Shown here one piece after another: positions 12,673 through 63,121 of a stretch of 64,000 bases of DNA. The notes under the pieces were generated by a model that saw only the letters and a program-made list of their open reading frames with translations, searched no databases and was not told the origin of the DNA. The DNA comes from a virus: IMG/VR virus record IMGVR_UViG_3300012005_000003, positions 13,041 through 77,040 of that record; one strand, 5' to 3'. The translations under genes and the position numbers were made by a program. Position 1 is the first letter of the stretch, and each line of letters starts with the position of its first letter.

Positions 12673-13611
12673 ATGTATAAAATATCAATGAAATATTGCA
12701 TAGTCGGCCCTCCTTTGTTTGGTAAAACTTTGTCCAAGAGCGAATCATGGACAAAACAGTTTGAATACTTTGAAAAAGTGTTAATACCGGCATACAAAGA
12801 AAGAGAATGTACTAATATGATCATAGCAGGTCCTATGTTTGAAACTAAACAGAAGATAGAGTGGTCAATGTTGACCAGATTTAAAAAGCTCTTAGAAGGA
12901 ATAGAAGTGTGGTATCTACCAAGATATTCAAAAGAGCCTTTCTTGGAATTGTTTAACATTATTAATATTTATACAGAACCTTTAAAAGTCGATAATATGG
13001 TATTAGTACCGTATATGAATAATGAAAAATTCATTACGTTTTTTAACAACTTGGATAATTATGAAAAGATGATCACTAATGCCGATGTATCAGGGGTATC
13101 TATGACAGAAAAGGATATATGTATATCCAATACTGATAAACATTACAGCAATGGCATAGTATTGAACAGTCCGTATATGTTAGATCCTGAATTCAATCAA
13201 AACAGAATCTTGTTTTATGATTCTGTTACAAAACAGGAAGAAATCATATTAAATATTTTTAATAAAAAGATCGTAAGAATGAAAATTGAAACTTTGGAGC
13301 AGATCGAAGAACTTGAAAACATGAATGATCTAACTATAGATTTCGAACTGGAAGTAAATGCTGAACTTGTTAAAGATCAGAAAATAAAAAAGAAAGTCAA
13401 AGCCCTGATGTTGAAACAGGGTATAAAAAGATTAGTGATAGAACAATATACAGATATCAAAAATGAAGAAATTGTTTTAGATCTTTCGAATCTGTTTGAT
13501 GTTTCTAAGATGAAAACAGATATCATTAATCAAATAACCAACAAAACAAAATCTGATTCAACTAAAGTTTCAGAAACGTTGAATCAGATTTTTGATGCTG
13601 CAATAAAATAG
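12673..13611 (+). CDS. gp47/SbcD/Mre11-like protein with all metal ligands replaced
   Basis: T4 gp47 pairs with gp46 as the recombination nuclease. This 312-residue protein follows the gp47 plan: MKYCIVGPPLFG (from residue 6) at the place of MKILNLGDWHLG; TNMIIAGPMFETKQKI (48-62) at the place of the GDIFDxR block; then a YLPRY where the GNHD motif is expected; later VLNSPYMLDP and FYDSVTKQ, like IGTPWTL and FDTETE of gp47; and a helical C-terminus. The Asp, His and Asn that bind the two metals are Pro, Leu, Pro and Arg here, so catalysis should be lost. It could serve as a structural partner of gp46 or as a regulator. An ATG at 12688 may be the true start. The alignment was made by eye. Confidence 0.6.
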   Translation: MYKISMKYCIVGPPLFGKTLSKSESWTKQFEYFEKVLIPAYKERECTNMIIAGPMFETKQKIEWSMLTRFKKLLEGIEVWYLPRYSKEPFLELFNIINIYTEPLKVDNMVLVPYMNNEKFITFFNNLDNYEKMITNADVSGVSMTEKDICISNTDKHYSNGIVLNSPYMLDPEFNQNRILFYDSVTKQEEIILNIFNKKIVRMKIETLEQIEELENMNDLTIDFELEVNAELVKDQKIKKKVKALMLKQGIKRLVIEQYTDIKNEEIVLDLSNLFDVSKMKTDIINQITNKTKSDSTKVSETLNQIFDAAIK

Positions 13612-29830: not shown

Positions 29831-30160
29831 CTAAACAGGCTGATAGTCGAAAGAAGAGTCCATCTTCTTGAGCATTGCAAATTTCTTGATTAGTTCTTTC
29901 TTTATGTTTGGAAGTTTCAATCTTTCAATAAAAGACAAATCCCATTTGATATTACCGTTATCGCCAAATCTACAAATAGATTTTCCAAAAGTTCTTCCTG
30001 GATCTTTTTCTTCCGAATCATAAACTGTTACAGATCCAAGGTGTCCAACACACTTCATGCCGTGTTTCGATAGCTCTGAAGCGAGTTCTATCAATCTCTG
30101 AGCCATGAAATCATTTCTTCTTTCATTGATAAATGTTTCATAGGTCTTAATAGTTTTCAT
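29831..30160 (-). CDS. Leader-bearing unknown protein, 109 aa
   Basis: MKTIKTYETFINER is the leader here closest to T4 MKTYQEFIAEA, and FINE fits the I-x-E site. The body has a segment HGMKCVGHLGSVTVYD that resembles LLKCVGRLCLLIHD in the leader-bearing protein at 46836-47237, so the two may be distant relatives. It is divergent from the leader-bearing gene at 30194, with 33 bases between their starts, and the TATATA there may serve this gene. Confidence 0.7.
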   Translation of the reverse strand: MKTIKTYETFINERRNDFMAQRLIELASELSKHGMKCVGHLGSVTVYDSEEKDPGRTFGKSICRFGDNGNIKWDLSFIERLKLPNIKKELIKKFAMLKKMDSSFDYQPV

Positions 30161-30193
30161 ATGCTTATATATAATTCAAATAGGTTTATCATC

Positions 30194-30805
30194 ATGATCC
30201 ATAATTTCAAACAGTTTCTTAACAAAATATACGAAGGCTACCAAGTTCCAAACGATGGTAGAAAATATAAATCTCTTTCTAGCGATGATATGAAAAAGAT
30301 TGCAAGTAGAAGATTATCAGATTCTGATATGAAACATCCTAGTCATGATATTGAAACAGCAGAAGTTGAAAAGGCTCCAAAGCTTAAAACAATGCCAGGA
30401 TTCAGAAGACTCATGTATAAGGATGCGGATCCTAAAAATATCAATGCAATCGCTTATGGTCCACTTGATATAGTTTTTGAACTAGATTTGGAAAACATAC
30501 CAGTTTATTCTGAATATCTAGAATCAAAACATAAAAACAAAAATGGATATGGCATAGGAAAGGCTTTATATTATGGATGGTCAGCAGATCAATACAGTGA
30601 TCAGCCTTATTTCTTTGTGACTTTATCTATAAACGATTCTAATGACAAACCAGCAGCAAACTTCATTCCTGATGTTCCTGTAGACGAACATGAAATGTAT
30701 GATCTTGTCTGGCAATTACTGGATGCGATAGATGATGTTAAAAGTGACAAAGAAGAATTACTCAATCCTATATATGTTACTAGCGGTAGACTAACCGATA
30801 AATAG
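30194..30805 (+). CDS. Leader-bearing unknown protein, 203 aa
   Basis: The start at 30194 (MIHNFKQFLNKIYEG) is preferred over an ATG at 30161, which would put 11 extra residues before the leader. The site reads FLNK or KIYE, so cleavage may be shifted. The body (VFELDLENIPVYSEYLESKH, ALYYGWSADQYSDQPYFFVTL) is mixed alpha/beta with no known motif. Divergent from another leader-bearing gene. Confidence 0.68.
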   Translation: MIHNFKQFLNKIYEGYQVPNDGRKYKSLSSDDMKKIASRRLSDSDMKHPSHDIETAEVEKAPKLKTMPGFRRLMYKDADPKNINAIAYGPLDIVFELDLENIPVYSEYLESKHKNKNGYGIGKALYYGWSADQYSDQPYFFVTLSINDSNDKPAANFIPDVPVDEHEMYDLVWQLLDAIDDVKSDKEELLNPIYVTSGRLTDK

Positions 30806-30847
30806 AACATCAAGAGAGAACAATTTTTAATTGATGAATGTTTTTAG

Positions 30848-30855
30848 TATTTTTG
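30848..30855 (+). promoter_or_regulatory. TAnnTTTG promoter box five bases from an ATG
   Basis: TATTTTTG fits the Bacteroidetes -7 consensus. It ends four bases before the ATG at 30860, so the transcript would start at or next to the start codon. The same arrangement, TTTAGTATTTTTGnTAnATGA, recurs at 42719. Confidence 0.5.
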
Positions 30856-30859
30856 CTAC

Positions 30860-31213
30860 ATGAAAAATAAAACAGAATTTAATGCTGAGCTTTCAACTCT
30901 GATGGAAAAATACAACATAGGATTAAGTGTAATGGTGACTGAGTTTAAAGAAGGAAACAATACAGTCATGTCAACTTCAGTATTCGATACAGTAAAAAAT
31001 AAATCTCGCAGGAACAAACTACTAAAAGAAGTTTCGGATCTTTTCCAGAAAACTGGTTTGGATTATTCTAAAATCAAGAATATTAATGATGTTTTAGAAT
31101 CTGCAAAATTAGAATTAGAGATGTTAACACTAATCAGAGATATTAAAGAAGTTGCAATATCAGAAAATGTTAAGAAGAAACTGAAATCTATAAGATCAAA
31201 CAAAAAGATATAA
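30860..31213 (+). CDS. Unknown protein, 117 aa, perhaps leaderless mRNA
   Basis: MKNKTEFNAELSTLMEKYNIGL is followed by a beta segment (SVMVTEFKEGNNTVMSTSVFD) and a Lys-rich helical half ending in KLKSIRSNKKI. It could bind nucleic acid by charge, but no motif is clear. The TAnnTTTG box almost touches the start codon, implying early expression by the host polymerase from a leaderless mRNA. No clear terminator follows. Confidence 0.65.
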   Translation: MKNKTEFNAELSTLMEKYNIGLSVMVTEFKEGNNTVMSTSVFDTVKNKSRRNKLLKEVSDLFQKTGLDYSKIKNINDVLESAKLELEMLTLIRDIKEVAISENVKKKLKSIRSNKKI

Positions 31214-55498: not shown

Positions 55499-55534
55499 AA
55501 AATTACAGAATCTAAACAAAGTTTAACTTTGAAA

Positions 55535-55681
55535 ATGATTGTAGATACTTTAATAGAAGGAATCAATGAAATGATTTATGAAAGAGTTGGAGAATTAGAA
55601 TCAATTCCAGAATTCAAAGATGTACCAGATGTTGAAAATATCATACGGAAAGAAGTCATTAATAAATTACAAAAATTTTAA
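55535..55681 (+). CDS. Small helical protein, 48 aa
   Basis: MIVDTLIEGINEMIYERVG leads to IIRKEVINKLQKF, charged and amphipathic helices. It ends five bases before a terminator at 55686, which supports a real transcript end. It lies 36 bases after the preceding gene. No family recognised. Confidence 0.5.
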   Translation: MIVDTLIEGINEMIYERVGELESIPEFKDVPDVENIIRKEVINKLQKF

Positions 55682-55770: not shown

Positions 55771-56166
55771 ATGTTAAAAGTAAAAACTAAATTAGGCCAA
55801 AGCAAAATTGCAGGTACAGGATTATTTGCAGATCAGTTCATTCCAAAAGATGCAATCATCTGGCAGTATGATTCAGATCATGATAAATCATATACTCAAG
55901 AACAATTAGATAAAACAGAAGGCTTGGATAGAGATTTTCTGAACACTTACTGTTTCAGATTTGATGGCTTATATTATCTGTGTATCGATAATTCAAGATT
56001 TTTCAATCATTCGGATAATCCTAATTGTTATTCATCTGAATTCAGTTCTGGTAATCTTGGTTACACAAAAGCCTTGAGAGATATAGAAATAGGAGAAGAA
56101 CTGACAGATGATTATCTTGGTTTTGGTTTGACTGATGAAGACAAAGAATGGAACAAACAATACTAA
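55771..56166 (+). CDS. SET-domain protein, 131 aa
   Basis: SET proteins transfer methyl groups from S-adenosylmethionine to lysines. Core motifs: IAGTGLFADQFIPKDAIIW (13-31), RFFNHSDNPNCYSS (76-89), and ALRDIEIGEELTDDY (101-115), all in order. The length of 131 residues is a minimal SET domain without a post-SET Cys cluster. Phages rarely carry one; a target on host or phage proteins is unknown. It lies alone after a terminator and overlaps a possible small gene at its end by 19 bases. Confidence 0.85.
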   Translation: MLKVKTKLGQSKIAGTGLFADQFIPKDAIIWQYDSDHDKSYTQEQLDKTEGLDRDFLNTYCFRFDGLYYLCIDNSRFFNHSDNPNCYSSEFSSGNLGYTKALRDIEIGEELTDDYLGFGLTDEDKEWNKQY

Positions 56167-56309
56167 ACATAAAGATAGAAAAATATAATATATTCGAAAA
56201 AGTACCAGTTCATGGATATACAGAAAATAATATGATATTAGGTCCTTATTCTTGTAAAGAAGATGCAGAAAAAGCTTCAGCTTTTTCTGCAAATATTTAT
56301 TTTCTATAA
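56148..56309 (+). CDS. Possible small protein, 53 aa
   Basis: ATG at 56148 lies inside the end of the SET gene. MEQTILNIKIEKYNIFEKVP, then MILGPYSCKEDAEKASAFS, has the look of a real protein (GPYxxKExAEKA is frequent in small bacterial proteins). It overlaps the end of the convergent synthetase gene by 13 bases and contains a 12-bp inverted repeat (about 56267-56292) that may act as a terminator. Confidence 0.42.
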   Translation: MEQTILNIKIEKYNIFEKVPVHGYTENNMILGPYSCKEDAEKASAFSANIYFL

Positions 56310-57634
56310 AACATATTCATAATAGGAATCATATCATCATATATCTCTTTCAAAGTAATAGATATAGATTTCTTTTTAGATTCTTCTATCCATTTAGAAC
56401 AAAACATGTCCCAAAAGAATTTATAAAACCTGTCATTCGCCTTATCTATTTCATAATTATCTAAATGTTCATATATTTCATTTTTGATGTTCAACCATAT
56501 AGATCCATATTCTTCTTTCTTTCCAATCCATTCGTTATCTATCTGCATGTCTATGAACAGTTTTGCATTTTTAAATTTATTTATGATCTTCCAACCCATC
56601 TTCATCTTCTGCTCATCAATTTTAGTGTCAGTTCCTAACGTATTAGAAAATGCCCAGTATCTTATACCAGATTGCCCATATTTTTCAAGCATTGGTTCAC
56701 ATGCTGTTGCATTGCCTGATGATTTACTAAACTTGTCACCTTTGCCATCAAGGGTGTGTCCAGTGATCATCAAAGTCTTCCAAGGTATTTGATTATTGAT
56801 AAAGTAAGACATAGCTATAGTATAGAATGCCCAAGTTCTGATGATGTCATGAGACTGGAATCTCATATCGAATATTGGACATTCCAACATATCATTATAT
56901 CCTCTATCTGCAGACCAAGCAATCTGAGGCGTTAATGCAGAAATGAACCAAGTATCAAAAGTGTATGTTTCATCTCCTGGTATATTTATACCGAAATTTC
57001 TTTCTCTTGAAATGGACCAATCCCACTGGATATTATCGCACCAATCATCAAACCTCTTTTTGTATTTTTCGGGTTTCCAATTAATCTTACTACCCATCTC
57101 TTTTATCTGAGAAATATGATCCTTGATATTGATGAACCAACCTTCTCCGGTTTTGATAATTGGAGTTTCACCAGTTCTTTCTATGAGTCCTTTATCGTCA
57201 AGTTCAGATTGTGATATAGATGTTTTTAATTGCTCAGACCATAAATATTCAGTAGTCTTTTTGTAAGCTATGCCTTTCTCTTTCAATATTTCAAAAGCTT
57301 GATATGCAATATCTATAGCAGTTTTATCATAAGTGTGATATTGATGATTCGAGAATTCTATACCACTGTTTTTGAATTCTTTTTTATAGTCTTCTGATTT
57401 ATCTATAGCAAAGCTTATTATATTCTCTTTACCCATTATGCCATTTTTAGATGCGAGTTTTCCTGTAGGGATGCCATTACAGTCGAAACAGAAAGGATAT
57501 AGAAGCTCTCTACCTTTTAATTTCTGATACTGCGCAATAAGATCTCCTTGAGTGTAAGAGAATATATGACCTATGTGTAATTTTCCTGATATAGTAGGAG
57601 GTGGAGTGTCGATTAAGAATTTATTTGTTTTCAT
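56297..57634 (-). CDS. Miniature valyl-tRNA synthetase-like protein without editing domain
   Basis: The ATG at 57632-57634 is chosen because MKTNKFLIDTPPPTISGKLH begins at the normal class I start; a longer frame to 57718 reads through a terminator hairpin. HIGH is at 20-23, KFSKS (for KMSKS) at 301-305. NGIPT, WDWSISRERNFG (204-215), DTWFISALTPQIAW (227-240) and SHDIIRTWAFYTI are valyl-type. Between SELDDK (143) and GWFINI (165) the usual editing domain of about 200 residues is gone. The chain ends at 445 residues inside the anticodon-binding part. It may charge tRNA without proofreading, or act on another amino acid acceptor. Confidence 0.75.
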   Translation of the reverse strand: MKTNKFLIDTPPPTISGKLHIGHIFSYTQGDLIAQYQKLKGRELLYPFCFDCNGIPTGKLASKNGIMGKENIISFAIDKSEDYKKEFKNSGIEFSNHQYHTYDKTAIDIAYQAFEILKEKGIAYKKTTEYLWSEQLKTSISQSELDDKGLIERTGETPIIKTGEGWFINIKDHISQIKEMGSKINWKPEKYKKRFDDWCDNIQWDWSISRERNFGINIPGDETYTFDTWFISALTPQIAWSADRGYNDMLECPIFDMRFQSHDIIRTWAFYTIAMSYFINNQIPWKTLMITGHTLDGKGDKFSKSSGNATACEPMLEKYGQSGIRYWAFSNTLGTDTKIDEQKMKMGWKIINKFKNAKLFIDMQIDNEWIGKKEEYGSIWLNIKNEIYEHLDNYEIDKANDRFYKFFWDMFCSKWIEESKKKSISITLKEIYDDMIPIMNMFYRK

Positions 57635-57662: not shown

Positions 57663-57691
57663 AAAAAAGTCCAACATTTATAATGTTGGAC
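57663..57691 (-). terminator. Terminator between homing endonuclease and synthetase genes
   Basis: On the minus strand GTCCAACATT pairs with AATGTTGGAC and six T follow (complement of 57663-57668). It lies 29 bases before the synthetase ATG, so that gene needs its own promoter or read-through. Confidence 0.85.
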
Positions 57692-57801
57692 TCTATATAA
57701 TAGATATGTGCACAACATCAGACTCGAGTTGTGACAATGACAGTATTTAAAGCAAAAATAGATTTCATTTTACAAATATACAACTATATATTCAGATTAT
57801 T

Positions 57802-59607
57802 TCAATTGTTAATAACTTTATTTTCATAAATATACAAGTTACTTCCTGTGTCATAACACCTTTCGTATCCATTATCTGCCATGATCTCAAATTCAGTCTG
57901 ATCAATCGTACCCAATCCTTTATCAACTAATGAACTTTTGGTGAAACCAAAACGATGATACCTAATACCATTTTTCACATACCAGTAGTTTGGAACAGTC
58001 GTCTTCGAATAAGAAAATCCGATCTTCTCATAGACATTGTCTGATAAACTCGACCAATCTAGTGAAGCATAGCTGAACACCGATATAGGATTTATTTCCT
58101 TTAGAAAATGTCTGAATAATCTGCTAGCACCTCCGATCACATTAAGATCTATCTTGTTACAGAACCTTAATAATTCATAAACACCTTCTTCTACAATTCT
58201 ACCTGTAACTCTCCTTCCATGCCCGAATGACATCATCGATACAGGTTCATCATTATACACAAGAGTATATACTATTTTAGAACCAACGAAACCTTGAATA
58301 TGGTTGTCTTCCATGAACTCTTTGTAGATAGAATAATCTTCCACTTTCACGATCTTGCATTTCCTGGCATATATCTTTTCTGATATCAAGCCTAACATGT
58401 TCCTGATCCTTGATTTGACTATCGATTTCCTTTCCATCCAATCGTCTTCCCATATATGAACTAGATTGATGCCTTTGTCATGAGCCAATTTCTTCTTATC
58501 TATGTGGTAGTTCTTGTCTTTGAATTTATCTGAATGCCAGTAGACTCCGTTGTATTCGAATGCAACATTTTTAGAAGGGATAAAACAATCAAGCTCTAAG
58601 CCTATCTGGGCTCTATCGTTGGATATACAATCTTGATTTAAAGATCTAACATAATCTGTAAGTTCTTTTTCACATATAGAGCCAATGTTTACAGGATTGC
58701 ATATAATACAAGGATTTTCAATTTTGTTAACTTTAACCCTTTGTGAAAAGAAAGCTGCATTGATTTCGTAAATGTGATTATGTATACAACAAACAGTCAT
58801 TATTCCGTTTTCACATTTTTTAATATCATGATTTGGGAATTTTATTAAATAATTTTCGTATTCAATTTTATTCCTTGTTTCAGCAGTTTTTATTTTTACT
58901 TCTTTGTTCTGAGCAGTACTTTTAGCTCCATATCTTTCCAGATTTGTTTTTTCCGCTTTATCTTTAATGCTTTCATGTTTAGCAGCATTAGTGACTCCAT
59001 ACCTTTCTAGATTCGTTTCAACAATCTTATTTTTGACAATATCTGAACTGAATGTATGATCAACTCCGTATCTCTCCTGATTAGTTGAAATCATTTTATC
59101 CATCACCTCTTTGTTTCCTGCAGGAGTATCAGAACCATATCGCTCTTGATTGGTAGTTTTAACCTTGTCCTTTTTGGATTGTAATTTAGCTGTATTGGTT
59201 ACACCGTATTTCTTTAGGTTATTCTTTTTGATTGTATCCTGAACCTCTTTGGACTGCGATGGATTCAGAACACCATAAGTATCCATCATTGTTTGTTCGC
59301 GCTTTCTGATCGTCTCTGGATGACTCTGGCTGCATTTAGAAGAACATGTTTTACTGTAACCTGTATTTGTAGATAAAAATGTTACTTTTTTAATTTTACA
59401 CACTTCACATAAAACATCATCAGGTAATTTGTGATAATAATGGTAAAGCCTTTCTGAAAATGATGAATATGGATCTAAATTTTTTGTATAGTCTAATATA
59501 GCATCATAAAATTCAGGAAAATTAGTAGATATAAAGCTTTGTCTTGCTTTAGAATTGAAGGTTCCGTCTTCTTTGGTTATGATTGAAAGCTCTTGTTGGA
59601 ATTGCAT
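57802..59607 (-). CDS. Homing endonuclease with YG repeats and Vsr-like nuclease domain, 601 aa
   Basis: Residues 80-110 include Cys pairs (CEVCKIKKV and CSSKCSQSHPE). Residues about 105-230 hold six repeats of about 20 residues (TNLERYGVTNAAKHESIKDK), each with ERYG or KKYG, which likely contact DNA. A further zinc-like segment (NPCIICNP) precedes ELDCFIPSKNVAFEYNGVYWHS, the nuclease core of the type seen in Vsr repair enzymes, and IWEDDW. A GNAT-like or novel domain follows (about 430-560). Free-standing homing enzymes of this type are common in T4-like phages and cut genomes lacking the element. It lies downstream of the capsid gene, beside a paralogue. Confidence 0.75.
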   Translation of the reverse strand: MQFQQELSIITKEDGTFNSKARQSFISTNFPEFYDAILDYTKNLDPYSSFSERLYHYYHKLPDDVLCEVCKIKKVTFLSTNTGYSKTCSSKCSQSHPETIRKREQTMMDTYGVLNPSQSKEVQDTIKKNNLKKYGVTNTAKLQSKKDKVKTTNQERYGSDTPAGNKEVMDKMISTNQERYGVDHTFSSDIVKNKIVETNLERYGVTNAAKHESIKDKAEKTNLERYGAKSTAQNKEVKIKTAETRNKIEYENYLIKFPNHDIKKCENGIMTVCCIHNHIYEINAAFFSQRVKVNKIENPCIICNPVNIGSICEKELTDYVRSLNQDCISNDRAQIGLELDCFIPSKNVAFEYNGVYWHSDKFKDKNYHIDKKKLAHDKGINLVHIWEDDWMERKSIVKSRIRNMLGLISEKIYARKCKIVKVEDYSIYKEFMEDNHIQGFVGSKIVYTLVYNDEPVSMMSFGHGRRVTGRIVEEGVYELLRFCNKIDLNVIGGASRLFRHFLKEINPISVFSYASLDWSSLSDNVYEKIGFSYSKTTVPNYWYVKNGIRYHRFGFTKSSLVDKGLGTIDQTEFEIMADNGYERCYDTGSNLYIYENKVINN

Positions 59608-59637: not shown

Positions 59638-61329
59638 TTAAATTTTTACTCTATGATTATAGGTGTAAAGGTTGGATCCAGAATCGTATATCATGTTACA
59701 ATCATTATCATTTATGGTATTTTTATCTATACCAAGACGATGGTAACGAATTCTATTTTTGATATACCAATTACTGGGAACTGTTGTTTTGAAATATTCA
59801 AAACCCAATTTTTCATATACTGTATCATTTAAATTTGACCAATCTAGTGAAGCATAACTGAATACTGATATAGGGTTTATTTCCTTTAGAAAATGTTTAA
59901 ATAGTTTACTTGCGCCACCTACAATATTTGTATCAATCTTATTACAAAACCTTAAAAGCTCATAAACATCTTCCTCTTTTTTCTTGCCTGTTATCATTCT
60001 AGCATGACCAAAAGACATCATTGAAACAATAATACCATTATACACAAGAGCATAAACAATCTTTGAATTGACAAATCCCTGTATATGATTCTCCTCCATA
60101 AAATCTTTATATACTGTTAAATCTTCAACTTTAACAATTTTACATTTTCTGGCATAGATACGTTCTGAAGTGTAACCTAGTATATTTTTAATCCTGGATT
60201 TAACTATATGCTTCTTCAATATCCAGATATCTTCCCATACATGTATAAGATTTATGCCTTTTTCATAAGCCTTTTTCTTTTTGTCTATATGGTAGTTTCT
60301 GCCTTTGAATTTATCAGAATGCCAGTAAATTCCATTATATTCTATAGCAATATTTTTTGAAGGAATATAACAATCTAATTCTCTTCCTATCTGTTCTCTG
60401 TCATTTATTATACATTCATCTCCGAATGATTTTATATAATCTATGAGTTCTTTTTCAGCAATAGATCCAACATCAATTGGATTACATATAACACATGGAT
60501 TTTCTACACCATATCTTCTGGTTCTCTGTCTAAAATCTCCTGTGTATATTTGATAATCATGTCCATTTATACATGTAATAGTTAGTATGCTTTTATTAGT
60601 AGCTTTTATTTTAAATTCAGGATATTTAAGTATATATTTTTCAAGTTCTTTTTTATTATTTTTTATAGAAGCTTTATTTTTTACTATATCACTTTTTGCA
60701 GCATTTTCATGACCGTATTTTTCTAGATTTGTTTTGGCCATTTTGTCTTTGACCACTTGATTCTGAGCTACATTTTCGTGACCATATTTTTCTAAGTTGG
60801 TTTTCTTAGCTTTATCTCTAACTTCTTTACTACCTGTAGGAGAATTTGAACCGTATCTCTCTTGGTTTGTCGCATTAGTTTTATCTCTTACTGTTTTCAG
60901 TTTTGCTGTATGAGTCACTCCGTATTTTGCAAGATTATTCTTCTTTATGGTTTCTTGGACCTCTTTGGATTGTGATGGACTTGTCACTCCGTATTTTTCC
61001 ATGAAAGAATTTTGTAAATTCTTTTTTGTTTCTGGATGATTCATGCTGCATTTAGGTCCGCAAGTTCTTGTATATCCTTTATTGATACTTAGAAATGCAC
61101 ATAGATCTTTTTTGCATACTGGGCAAACAACGGTATCAGGTATTTTGTAAATATAGTGGTATATCTTTTGTGAAAATTTATCTCCTACTGTTATATCTTT
61201 GGTATATTCTAATATAGCTTTATGGAATTCTGGATATAATGAAGATATGCGAGGTTCTCTGATCTTTCCGTTTGAGAAATCTTCAGAGTCTTCCTTTTTT
61301 AGTTCGTTTATTATTTCTTTAAAATCCAT
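59638..61329 (-). CDS. Second homing endonuclease, paralogue, 563 aa
   Basis: Shares the whole plan of the gene next to it: Cys pairs (CPVCKK, CGPKC), YG repeats (TNLEKYGHENVAQNQVVKDK), NPCVICNP, ELDCYIPSKNIAIEYNGIYWHS, and VWEDIW. The repeats are fewer (five). The C-terminal region is about 75 percent identical by eye, whereas the repeat region differs more, so the two may have different cutting sites. Their codon use is more AT-rich than the capsid gene. They sit between gp23 and the synthetase gene, an essential-gene location typical for homing. Confidence 0.75.
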   Translation of the reverse strand: MDFKEIINELKKEDSEDFSNGKIREPRISSLYPEFHKAILEYTKDITVGDKFSQKIYHYIYKIPDTVVCPVCKKDLCAFLSINKGYTRTCGPKCSMNHPETKKNLQNSFMEKYGVTSPSQSKEVQETIKKNNLAKYGVTHTAKLKTVRDKTNATNQERYGSNSPTGSKEVRDKAKKTNLEKYGHENVAQNQVVKDKMAKTNLEKYGHENAAKSDIVKNKASIKNNKKELEKYILKYPEFKIKATNKSILTITCINGHDYQIYTGDFRQRTRRYGVENPCVICNPIDVGSIAEKELIDYIKSFGDECIINDREQIGRELDCYIPSKNIAIEYNGIYWHSDKFKGRNYHIDKKKKAYEKGINLIHVWEDIWILKKHIVKSRIKNILGYTSERIYARKCKIVKVEDLTVYKDFMEENHIQGFVNSKIVYALVYNGIIVSMMSFGHARMITGKKKEEDVYELLRFCNKIDTNIVGGASKLFKHFLKEINPISVFSYASLDWSNLNDTVYEKLGFEYFKTTVPSNWYIKNRIRYHRLGIDKNTINDNDCNMIYDSGSNLYTYNHRVKI

Positions 61330-61438: not shown

Positions 61439-63121
61439 TTACACTAAGTAAGATAAAGGATCAGTTACTTTAATTGTTAAGTATTGTTTTTGAGGGAAGA
61501 ATCCGCCTTCAACAACAGCGTAACGAGAACGTAAAAATAATCTTGGTGCTCTAGTTGCTTCAGAAATTAAACTGATTGATTGTGCCATTAAGTAAGGTAC
61601 GAATACGATACCTGGTTGATCAACTTCGTTACGACGGCCTAACACAACACGATTATCATCATACTTCATGTATGGATCAACGTAAACTTGAATACCTGCA
61701 ATTTGTCCTACTGGATATAATTGACCGTTAGTGTTCATGTTTCCTTTAACAGGACTGATTGTGTAAGCAGCAGCATCAGATAAAGCAGCAGCGATACGGC
61801 CGTTAGTTACTAAATAAGTAGCAGGCCCGATTCGTCCTTCAGAAGCAATAAAGTTGCTACCAGCAAATATTTTAGAACATAACTTACGCTGTATAGCATG
61901 AGTAGTTTCACCTTGAGGTCCACCAGCAGCTAAGTAAGCAGTATCTAAGTCGAAAATTGTACCTGTGCCCATAACTGGAGCAGCAGCTCTGTTTAATTCT
62001 CCCATTTGGAAAATCTTCTCAACAATTTGACGAGAGATAGTTTGAGATAATTCATTAACTAAAACTGATTCTAATTTCTGAACGATGTCGATTCCTGTTT
62101 GAGATTTGATATCTTCCATCTCTGTACGCTTTAAAGCAGAAGAGATTTCGATAGTACCAACAGTTACACGCTTAGTAGAAACGTTTGGAGCGATAATTCC
62201 TGGGTAGTTCATATCATCTTCTTGACGAGACATTGGGTAAGACTTGTTCCAGTTAGAAACGAAACCTGGGATATGGTCTTCCATAGCTGAAATTAATTCA
62301 ACAGATGCTGTAGTAAAAGCACCAGTAGGAACAGCAGTTGTAGCAACACCGTTAACTGTTGTTGGAGCAGCAAAACCTAAATTAATAACATCAGAAACTA
62401 CTTCTGTTATTGTAAATGTGTTTTTACTACCATCGAATGTATAACTACCAGCAGAAGCTGTGTTATTCTGACGATATGATCTTAACATTGGCAAACCATC
62501 GATACGAGAGTATCCTAAGAACTCTAATACATGTGTTTTAGAAACTGAAGGCTCAATTAAAGCATCAGCTAAAGTAATACCAGTTATTGAAACAAATATA
62601 CGTTTGTTTAATCCACCTTGAGATAATACAGCGCCAGCATTAGCAATTAAAGCATTTAAGAAAGTTTTAGCAGTTGCCATGTCAGCAGTACCGAAACGAA
62701 TTTTGAACACTTGAGGTCTTTCGTCTGTTCCATCTGGAGTATCATCGTAACGATAGTCTACGTAGAATAAGTCTATAACTGGTCCTGGAGTTGGTTTAAC
62801 AGGAACTAAGTCTAAACCGATTGTTTGTGCAGCAACTTTCATTGAAGCAGCTAACAATTGTTGACCTAAGTCACCTGAACCTACTGCACCACTTGCTGTA
62901 TAAGCAGCACCTGGGATTGTACCTGCGGTTGGAGAAATAACTGCGCCCATACCTGAAACGTTAGCGTTGTTCGCGTAAGCGATGTTCTCATTTAATTGGT
63001 GATATTCTGCATACTCAGCCATCCATGACTTTTTGTAACTGTCAGTTCCAACACCTAAGCTCTCGATAATCGGAGCCCATTTTTTTTCGATTTTTTTCTT
63101 GTCGATTTGAACGTGGTTCAT
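61439..63121 (-). CDS. 23: gp23-type major capsid protein, 560 aa
   Basis: The capsid shell protein with HK97-type fold. The N-terminal part MNHVQIDKKKIEKKWAPIIE is a propeptide like that of T4 gp23 (MTIKTKAELLNKWKPLLE). The end YHQLNENIAYANN provides an L-N-E cleavage point after Glu45, near the T4 site at residue 65. VSTKRVTVGTIEISSALKRTEMEDIKSQTG (about 290-320), then VLVNELSQTISRQIVEKIFQMG, is the gp23 core. A segment with ILGPASYLVTNG-like sequence and the ending FFPQKQYLTIKVTDPLSYLV follow. Length near T4's 521. Third-position base use is less AT-rich than in accessory genes, fitting high expression. Confidence 0.95.
   Translation of the reverse strand: MNHVQIDKKKIEKKWAPIIESLGVGTDSYKKSWMAEYAEYHQLNENIAYANNANVSGMGAVISPTAGTIPGAAYTASGAVGSGDLGQQLLAASMKVAAQTIGLDLVPVKPTPGPVIDLFYVDYRYDDTPDGTDERPQVFKIRFGTADMATAKTFLNALIANAGAVLSQGGLNKRIFVSITGITLADALIEPSVSKTHVLEFLGYSRIDGLPMLRSYRQNNTASAGSYTFDGSKNTFTITEVVSDVINLGFAAPTTVNGVATTAVPTGAFTTASVELISAMEDHIPGFVSNWNKSYPMSRQEDDMNYPGIIAPNVSTKRVTVGTIEISSALKRTEMEDIKSQTGIDIVQKLESVLVNELSQTISRQIVEKIFQMGELNRAAAPVMGTGTIFDLDTAYLAAGGPQGETTHAIQRKLCSKIFAGSNFIASEGRIGPATYLVTNGRIAAALSDAAAYTISPVKGNMNTNGQLYPVGQIAGIQVYVDPYMKYDDNRVVLGRRNEVDQPGIVFVPYLMAQSISLISEATRAPRLFLRSRYAVVEGGFFPQKQYLTIKVTDPLSYLV

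What the first reader, a model, noticed from the sequence alone, without database searches (positions are those of the whole stretch)
56297..57634. Valyl-tRNA synthetase-like gene lacking the editing domain
The catalytic halves with HIGH, KFSKS, DWSISRERNFG and TPQIAW are well kept and resemble valyl enzymes, yet the insertion that removes mischarged threonine is replaced by about 16 residues, and the C-terminus is cut short (445 against 850-950 residues). Such an enzyme might mischarge tRNA, charge a special phage tRNA or work as a non-canonical aminoacyl transferase. The only tRNA seen here reads AUG, not Val.
Basis: partly seen in the sequence, partly recalled or inferred. Interest (0 to 1): 0.72.

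Follow-up and report, generated by a model that had tools for sequence, protein, structure and literature searches.

The report
Phage valine-tRNA ligase without proofreading domain
A large virus of bacteria carries a half-size enzyme that, by its sequence, should load valine onto transfer RNA but has lost the part that removes wrongly loaded amino acids; related giant phages carry the same stripped-down enzyme beside dozens of their own tRNAs, which suggests they run protein synthesis with less proofreading than their hosts.

Summary
Confirmed: window 56297-57634 (-) encodes an intact 445-aa class Ia synthetase. A tree places it, with four relatives, in a 100/100 clade sister to full-length archaeal-type ValRS of bacteria, apart from IleRS, LeuRS and MetRS. 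All valine-pocket and catalytic residues are kept. The CP1 editing domain (157-197 aa in cellular ValRS) is a 15-aa linker, the second insertion is shed, and the C-terminus is cut to a helical bundle. Four intact homologues from different phage contigs share this layout, so it is not an assembly error or pseudogene. The missing tRNA-Val reflects the 101-kb contig: the nearest relative (634-kb phage, 70% identity) has 59 tRNA predictions including two tRNA-Val, and a 532-kb relative has four tRNA-Val. Two other phages carry a compact ValRS of bacterial type; one common origin is rejected (AU p=1.5e-5). CP1-less LeuRS is common in huge phages, and these genomes also hold editing-less AlaRS and ThrRS. 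No stand-alone editing domain was found. Best explanation: a working ValRS that charges phage and host tRNA-Val without post-transfer proofreading. aaRS in huge phages are known; I found no report of a natural editing-less ValRS.

The parts
56297..57634 (-). Compact valyl-tRNA synthetase gene, 445 aa
   Evidence: ORF; NCBIfam PRK13208 ValRS; tree; AF2 model pLDDT 91.6, best query-normalised TM-score to ValRS 1gax 0.89
57584..57604 (-). PPPTISG, first valine-pocket strand (P11/P12 = Tth P41/P42; ValRS type, IleRS has G at P11)
   Evidence: group-wise residue table; Tth numbering alignment
57566..57577 (-). HIGH motif (residues 20-23)
57161..57205 (-). CP1 scar: 15-residue linker ELDDKGLIERTGETP in place of the 157-197 aa editing domain
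   Evidence: alignment and CP1 profile
56990..57022 (-). DWSISRERNFG motif
56954..56980 (-). CP2 scar: PGDETYTFD in place of a 37-48 residue loop (zinc knuckle in many cellular ValRS)
56948..56950 (-). W229 = Tth W456, valine pocket
56831..56851 (-). HDIIRTW with I264 (= Tth I491; Gln in all IleRS rows) and W268 (= Tth W495)
56720..56734 (-). KFSKS (KMSKS) motif, residues 301-305
56306..56614 (-). Reduced anticodon-binding helical bundle, four predicted helices (residues 341-443); C-terminal extension absent
   Evidence: AF2 secondary structure; Pfam Anticodon_1 at 384-441, profile 12-77 of 148
57663..57692 (-). Terminator-like hairpin AGTCCAACAT..ATGTTGGACT-TTTTT just upstream of the start
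   Evidence: sequence printed; read by eye, not scored
39003..39075 (-). Only tRNA of the contig, anticodon CAU, A73

Best explanation
It is a phage valyl-tRNA synthetase reduced to its catalytic core and a short anticodon-arm bundle. It should activate valine with ATP at the HIGH/KFSKS site and transfer it to tRNA-Val (phage tRNA-Val where the phage has it, host tRNA-Val otherwise), supporting translation during infection. With the CP1 domain gone it cannot hydrolyse Thr-tRNAVal after transfer, so fidelity rests on the synthetic site and any pre-transfer editing, and some Thr at Val codons is expected. Shown: ancestry, intact pocket and motifs, absence of CP1, recurrence in several phages, tRNA-Val genes in relatives. 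Inferred: aminoacylation activity, tRNA choice, and the rate of mischarging.
For: Tree: compact clade 100/100, sister to archaeal-type ValRS within a 100/99 clade (100/100 in the larger tree), apart from IleRS, LeuRS and MetRS. P11, D51, W229, I264, W268, H20/H23, K301/K304 are kept in all five members; I264 separates Val from Ile. Fold: mean pLDDT 91.6; among listed PDB matches the highest query-normalised TM-score is ValRS-tRNAVal 1gax (0.89), and M. mobile LeuRS, which naturally lacks the editing domain, gives 0.80-0.81 (PMC4267643). Four intact homologues of equal layout in different contigs. Relatives encode 2 and 4 tRNA-Val, all with A35, C36 and A73. In the 634-kb relative the gene lies next to MetRS and EF-G, and in G019 about 4 kb from a compact LeuRS. 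No stand-alone CP1 or tRNA_SAD editing domain in G000, W01 or G001. Substitutions mostly synonymous.
Against: No biochemical test. The missing C-terminal part could weaken anticodon recognition, and specificity for tRNA-Val cannot be shown here. The contig itself has no tRNA-Val, so in this phage the partner tRNA is unknown. The alignment that gave the good model is mostly full-length cellular ValRS; the family alone (3 rows) gave pLDDT 41.7.
Confidence: 0.8

Rival explanations
1. The enzyme has been recruited for something other than translation (amino-acid transfer to another molecule, signalling, or a structural role).
For: Loss of tRNA-contacting parts (C-terminal half of the anticodon domain) is seen in aaRS paralogues with other jobs (general knowledge); catalytic motifs would be kept in such a case too.
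Against: Co-occurs with large tRNA sets, several other aaRS, EF-G, a release-factor-like protein and peptide deformylase in W01; a helical anticodon-type bundle is still there; a second compact ValRS lineage evolved separately in other phages.
Confidence: 0.08
2. It charges tRNA-Val but fidelity is restored in another way, so there is no real mistranslation: a stricter synthetic site, strong pre-transfer editing, or re-editing of released Thr-tRNAVal by host ValRS. (A sub-case of the best explanation, differing in consequence.)
For: Yeast mitochondrial ThrRS without an editing domain has pre-transfer editing (PMC4267643).
Against: The valine pocket residues are unchanged from editing ValRS. 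E. coli ValRS edits Thr-tRNAVal mainly in cis (PMC9023258), so rescue in trans by the host enzyme is doubtful. M. mobile LeuRS, also naturally without an editing domain, shows no tRNA-stimulated AMP formation (PMC4267643).
Confidence: 0.25
3. Gene decay or assembly error: the insert was lost by deletion and the gene is a dying copy.
For: One relative (G002/L008) is broken by frameshifts.
Against: Window gene plus four intact homologues with the same junctions, pS far above pN; L008 lies in a contig whose other ORFs also look frameshifted.
Confidence: 0.02
4. It belongs to a class Ia family that never had a large editing domain (MetRS- or CysRS-like) and resembles ValRS by chance.
For: The top Foldseek E-values are MetRS, as expected for any class Ia core without CP1.
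Against: Tree and pocket residues; curated-model scores ValRS 328.8 bits, MetRS 102 bits, CysRS 24 bits.
Confidence: 0.01

Closest known systems
Archaeal-type valyl-tRNA synthetase (NCBIfam PRK13208), as in Rickettsiales, Clostridia, Chloroflexota and others
   Same: Catalytic core about 32-38% identical, IDTPPPTxSGxLHxGHxFSY, DxNGxPT, HxIIRTWAFYTI, KxSKS; sister in the tree
   Different: They have CP1 (157-197 aa), the CP2/zinc loop, a longer anticodon domain and a C-terminal extension
Valyl-tRNA synthetase of Stenotrophomonas phage RAS14 (WAX21612.1, 449 aa) and of the G017 phage contig (509 aa)
   Same: Also phage, also CP1-less and CP2-less compact ValRS
   Different: Bacterial-type ValRS ancestry (PPPN, DHA); common origin with the window clade rejected, p-AU 1.5e-5
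Mycoplasma mobile LeuRS (PDB 3ziu)
   Same: Natural class Ia synthetase without an editing domain (PMC4267643); similar fold, TM 0.80-0.81
   Different: Leucine enzyme of a cellular parasite; LeuRS is a different branch of the tree
Compact LeuRS of huge phages (W01 404831-406099, 422 aa, and 28 IMG/VR contigs)
   Same: Same kind of domain shedding: HIGH to DWxxSR 173-177 residues in 14 intact ORFs, against 366 in E. coli LeuRS
   Different: LeuRS ancestry; much more widespread than compact ValRS
Huge-phage aaRS reported by Al-Shayeb et al. 2020 (PMC7162821)
   Same: Phage-encoded aaRS and tRNAs; up to 15 synthetases per genome
   Different: Searches of the main text for 'truncat', 'minimal' and 'domain' gave nothing on loss of editing domains; the supplement could not be read

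Membership tests
Valyl-tRNA synthetase (ValRS) | Class I HIGH and KMSKS motifs in a Rossmann core | tested here: met
   H20-H23, K301-S305; model and fold match
Valyl-tRNA synthetase (ValRS) | Phylogenetic position within ValRS, apart from IleRS and LeuRS | tested here: met
   Clade with archaeal-type ValRS 100/99; all ValRS together 98/92, 97/94
Valyl-tRNA synthetase (ValRS) | Valine pocket residues P41/P42, W456, I491, W495 (Tth numbering) | tested here: met
   Present in all five members; that these line the pocket is established knowledge of the 1gax structure
Valyl-tRNA synthetase (ValRS) | CP1 post-transfer editing domain | tested here: not met
   15-residue linker; CP1 profile finds only the IleRS genes in G000, W01 and G001
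Valyl-tRNA synthetase (ValRS) | Curated full-length score of the ValRS equivalog model (738 bits) | tested here: not met
   328.8 bits; expected, because much of the model length has no counterpart
Valyl-tRNA synthetase (ValRS) | Valine-dependent aminoacylation of tRNA-Val | not testable with these tools
   needs biochemistry; tRNA-Val genes present in relatives W01 and G001
Methionyl-tRNA synthetase (class Ia without CP1 editing domain) | Groups with MetRS in the tree | tested here: not met
   MetRS rows incl. two phage MetRS form a separate 100/99 clade
CP1-less leucyl-tRNA synthetase (M. mobile / huge-phage type) | Groups with LeuRS; PYPSG motif | tested here: not met
   LeuRS clade 100/100 excludes it; it has PPPTISG. 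The M. mobile protein itself was not a row

The most novel reading that the evidence does not exclude
Huge phages repeatedly strip proofreading from the synthetases they carry (Val twice, plus Leu, Ala, Thr), so that translation in the infected cell runs in an intrinsically error-prone mode, for example with Thr or 2-aminobutyrate at Val codons, and the phage tolerates or profits from the resulting mixed proteins.
Probability: 0.2. Interest if true: 0.85.

Novelty: new variant of a known kind. Interest (0 to 1): 0.62.

Why it matters
ValRS is one of the textbook double-sieve enzymes, and I found no report of a natural ValRS without the editing domain in the papers searched. Finding it in two separate phage lineages, together with CP1-less LeuRS and editing-less AlaRS and ThrRS in the same kind of genomes, turns the question of whether large viruses need translational fidelity into something that can be tested with purified enzymes and proteomics. 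Such small natural synthetases (about 205-450 aa) are also useful for the study of minimal aaRS and for orthogonal translation.

Tried and rejected
The weak PF00133 match at G000:C1:77741 lies in a 743-aa protein without HIGH/KMSKS: chance. A viral scan with RAS14 found no relatives; a repeat scan with four rows gave the same three loci. A stand-alone CP1 or Ala/Thr editing domain was looked for and not found. dN/dS proper could not be given because dS is saturated. The many contigs filed as 'Listeria phage' or 'Enterococcus phage' in the phage search look like bacterial sequence and were not used. Archaeal, Bacteroidota and CysRS sequences were not in the tree; the label 'archaeal-type' rests on the NCBIfam model and general knowledge.

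Full report
What is there. The window is G000:C1:13041-77040 of a 101,400-base virus record. The contig carries a gp23-type major capsid protein (61439-63121), a portal protein and a T4-like DNA polymerase, so it is a tailed phage and, at 101 kb, probably a piece of a larger genome. The gene 56297-57634 on the minus strand gives 445 aa from an ATG; a terminator-like hairpin lies just upstream. Its neighbours are a SET-domain protein on one side and two tandem homing endonucleases and the capsid gene on the other.

Identity. Curated models rank ValRS PRK13208 first (328.8 bits), then alt_ValS and valS, with IleRS at 162.7, MetRS at 102 and CysRS at 24 bits. The best sequence match among solved structures is Thermus ValRS 1gax. 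In a 59-row IQ-TREE of core columns the window protein, its 634-kb-phage homologue, the G001 protein and L067 form a 100/100 clade that joins 24 archaeal-type ValRS of bacteria at 100/99; IleRS, LeuRS, MetRS and bacterial-type ValRS are separate clades. Adding two further phage sequences leaves this unchanged. All five members keep P11/P12, D51, W229, I264 and W268, which correspond to P41/P42, D81, W456, I491 and W495 of the Thermus enzyme; IleRS rows have Gly at P11 and Gln at I264.

What is missing. CP1 is 157-197 residues in 28 cellular ValRS and 15 in the window, 634-kb, G001, L067 and G019 proteins. The loop after DWxISRxRxxGxxIP (37-48 residues in the ValRS shown, often a zinc knuckle) is 8-10 residues. 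The protein ends before the C-terminal part of the anticodon domain, leaving four predicted helices at 341-443. With a 51-row alignment AlphaFold2 gives mean pLDDT 91.6 and pTM 0.91; because most rows are full-length ValRS this supports the fold but is not independent of the homology. Foldseek gives the highest query-normalised TM-score among listed matches to ValRS 1gax (0.89); the editing-domain-less Mycoplasma mobile LeuRS scores 0.80-0.81 and MetRS about 0.75-0.84.

Distribution. Relatives: LR745206.1, 634,780 bases (70%, 443 aa); G019, 132 kb (64%, 442 aa); L067, 32 kb (47%); G001, 532,729 bases (46%); and a frameshifted copy in a 146-kb contig. By its length LR745206.1 is probably the 634-kb Mahaphage of Al-Shayeb et al. 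2020 (PMC7162821); that is an inference. Two other phages, RAS14 (449 aa, annotated valyl-tRNA synthetase) and G017 (509 aa), have a compact ValRS that branches with bacterial-type ValRS (99/95 as a pair). Forcing all compact ValRS into one clade costs 129 log-likelihood units, p-AU 1.5e-5. Long branches are present, so this is strong but model-dependent. Editing-less ValRS therefore most likely arose at least twice in phages.

Context in relatives. The 634-kb phage has 59 tRNA predictions, with tRNA-Val UAC and GAC. It encodes IleRS of 735 aa with CP1, compact LeuRS of 422 aa, MetRS of 457 aa, GluRS of 492 aa and a GluRS-like protein of 285 aa, AsnRS, AspRS, HisRS of 211 aa, GlyRS of 246 aa and AlaRS of 248 aa that is too short to hold the editing part, plus EF-G, a release-factor-like protein, peptide deformylase, RNA-ligase-like proteins and Thg1 (several names by eye). 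G001 has 56 tRNA predictions with four tRNA-Val and a ThrRS of 408 aa that aligns only to E. coli ThrRS 242-615, so it lacks the N-terminal editing domain. All six tRNA-Val have A35, C36 and A73. CP1-less LeuRS was found in 28 IMG/VR contigs of up to 508 kb; the 14 intact ORFs measured have 173-177 residues from HIGH to DWxxSR, against 366 in E. coli. tRNA_SAD editing domains and stand-alone CP1 were not found in G000, W01 or G001; IleRS keeps CP1. The ValRS is the most conserved of the 27 ORFs that G000 shares with the 634-kb phage (67-70% against about 27-56%, leaving aside its antisense ORF), which fits either slow evolution or transfer between phages.

Mechanism. Shown: ancestry, intact synthetic site, absent post-transfer editing domain, purifying pattern of change (pS 0.75, pN 0.20). 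Inferred: it makes Val-tRNAVal and cannot clear Thr-tRNAVal. The biological threat to ValRS is Thr, and E. coli ValRS edits it mainly in cis (PMC9023258). Natural editing-domain-less LeuRS (M. mobile) and yeast mitochondrial ThrRS show that such enzymes can serve translation (PMC4267643). A lytic phage has a short translation phase, so loss of fidelity may be cheap, while smaller genes save space; this selective account is speculation.

Novelty. Phage aaRS and CP1-less LeuRS are known kinds. A natural ValRS without CP1 was not found in nine literature searches of the open library; subscription papers and supplements could not be read. I therefore file it as a new variant of a known kind, a CP1-less lineage next to ValRS: ValRS by descent and pocket, failing the editing-domain criterion.

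Noticed in passing
W01 (LR745206.1) 345425-346060, 367172-367912, 368058-368804; G001 60043-60660, 499480-500247, 30065-31063: Very short class II synthetases in two huge phages: HisRS 211/205 aa, GlyRS 246/255 aa, AlaRS 248/332 aa; the W01 proteins match only the catalytic part of their models.
   Followed up: partly
W01 404831-406099 and L241-L268: CP1-less leucyl-tRNA synthetase is a common gene of huge-phage contigs (28 IMG/VR loci, 61-85% identical).
   Followed up: partly
G001 121393-121540, c491736-491826, 80837-80930: Three tRNA predictions with CUA anticodon and one with UCA in the 532-kb phage, although TAG and TGA are still common stops of its long ORFs.
   Followed up: partly
W01 407364-407437; G001 13184-13278, 55504-55586: tRNA predictions with four-base anticodons (gtag, cttg, aagg); may be prediction artefacts or frameshift-suppressor-like tRNAs.
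   Followed up: no
window 57802-59607 and 59638-61329: Tandem paralogous homing endonucleases (DUF7487, phrog_3339) between the compact ValRS and the gp23 capsid gene.
   Followed up: partly
window 32176 (+), 47579 (-), 50674 (+), 55196 (+) and further ORFs of G000 outside the window: At least nine ORFs of G000 start with a shared MKHIKLFEQFLNE-like stretch, reminiscent of the capsid-targeting sequence of T4 internal head proteins (from memory).
   Followed up: partly
W01 369376-370191 and G001 393590-394396: Thg1-like tRNAHis guanylyltransferase, 63% identical between two otherwise distant huge phages, near the mini-synthetase and tRNA clusters in W01.
   Followed up: no
window 55771-56166: SET-domain protein encoded next to the compact ValRS.
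   Followed up: no
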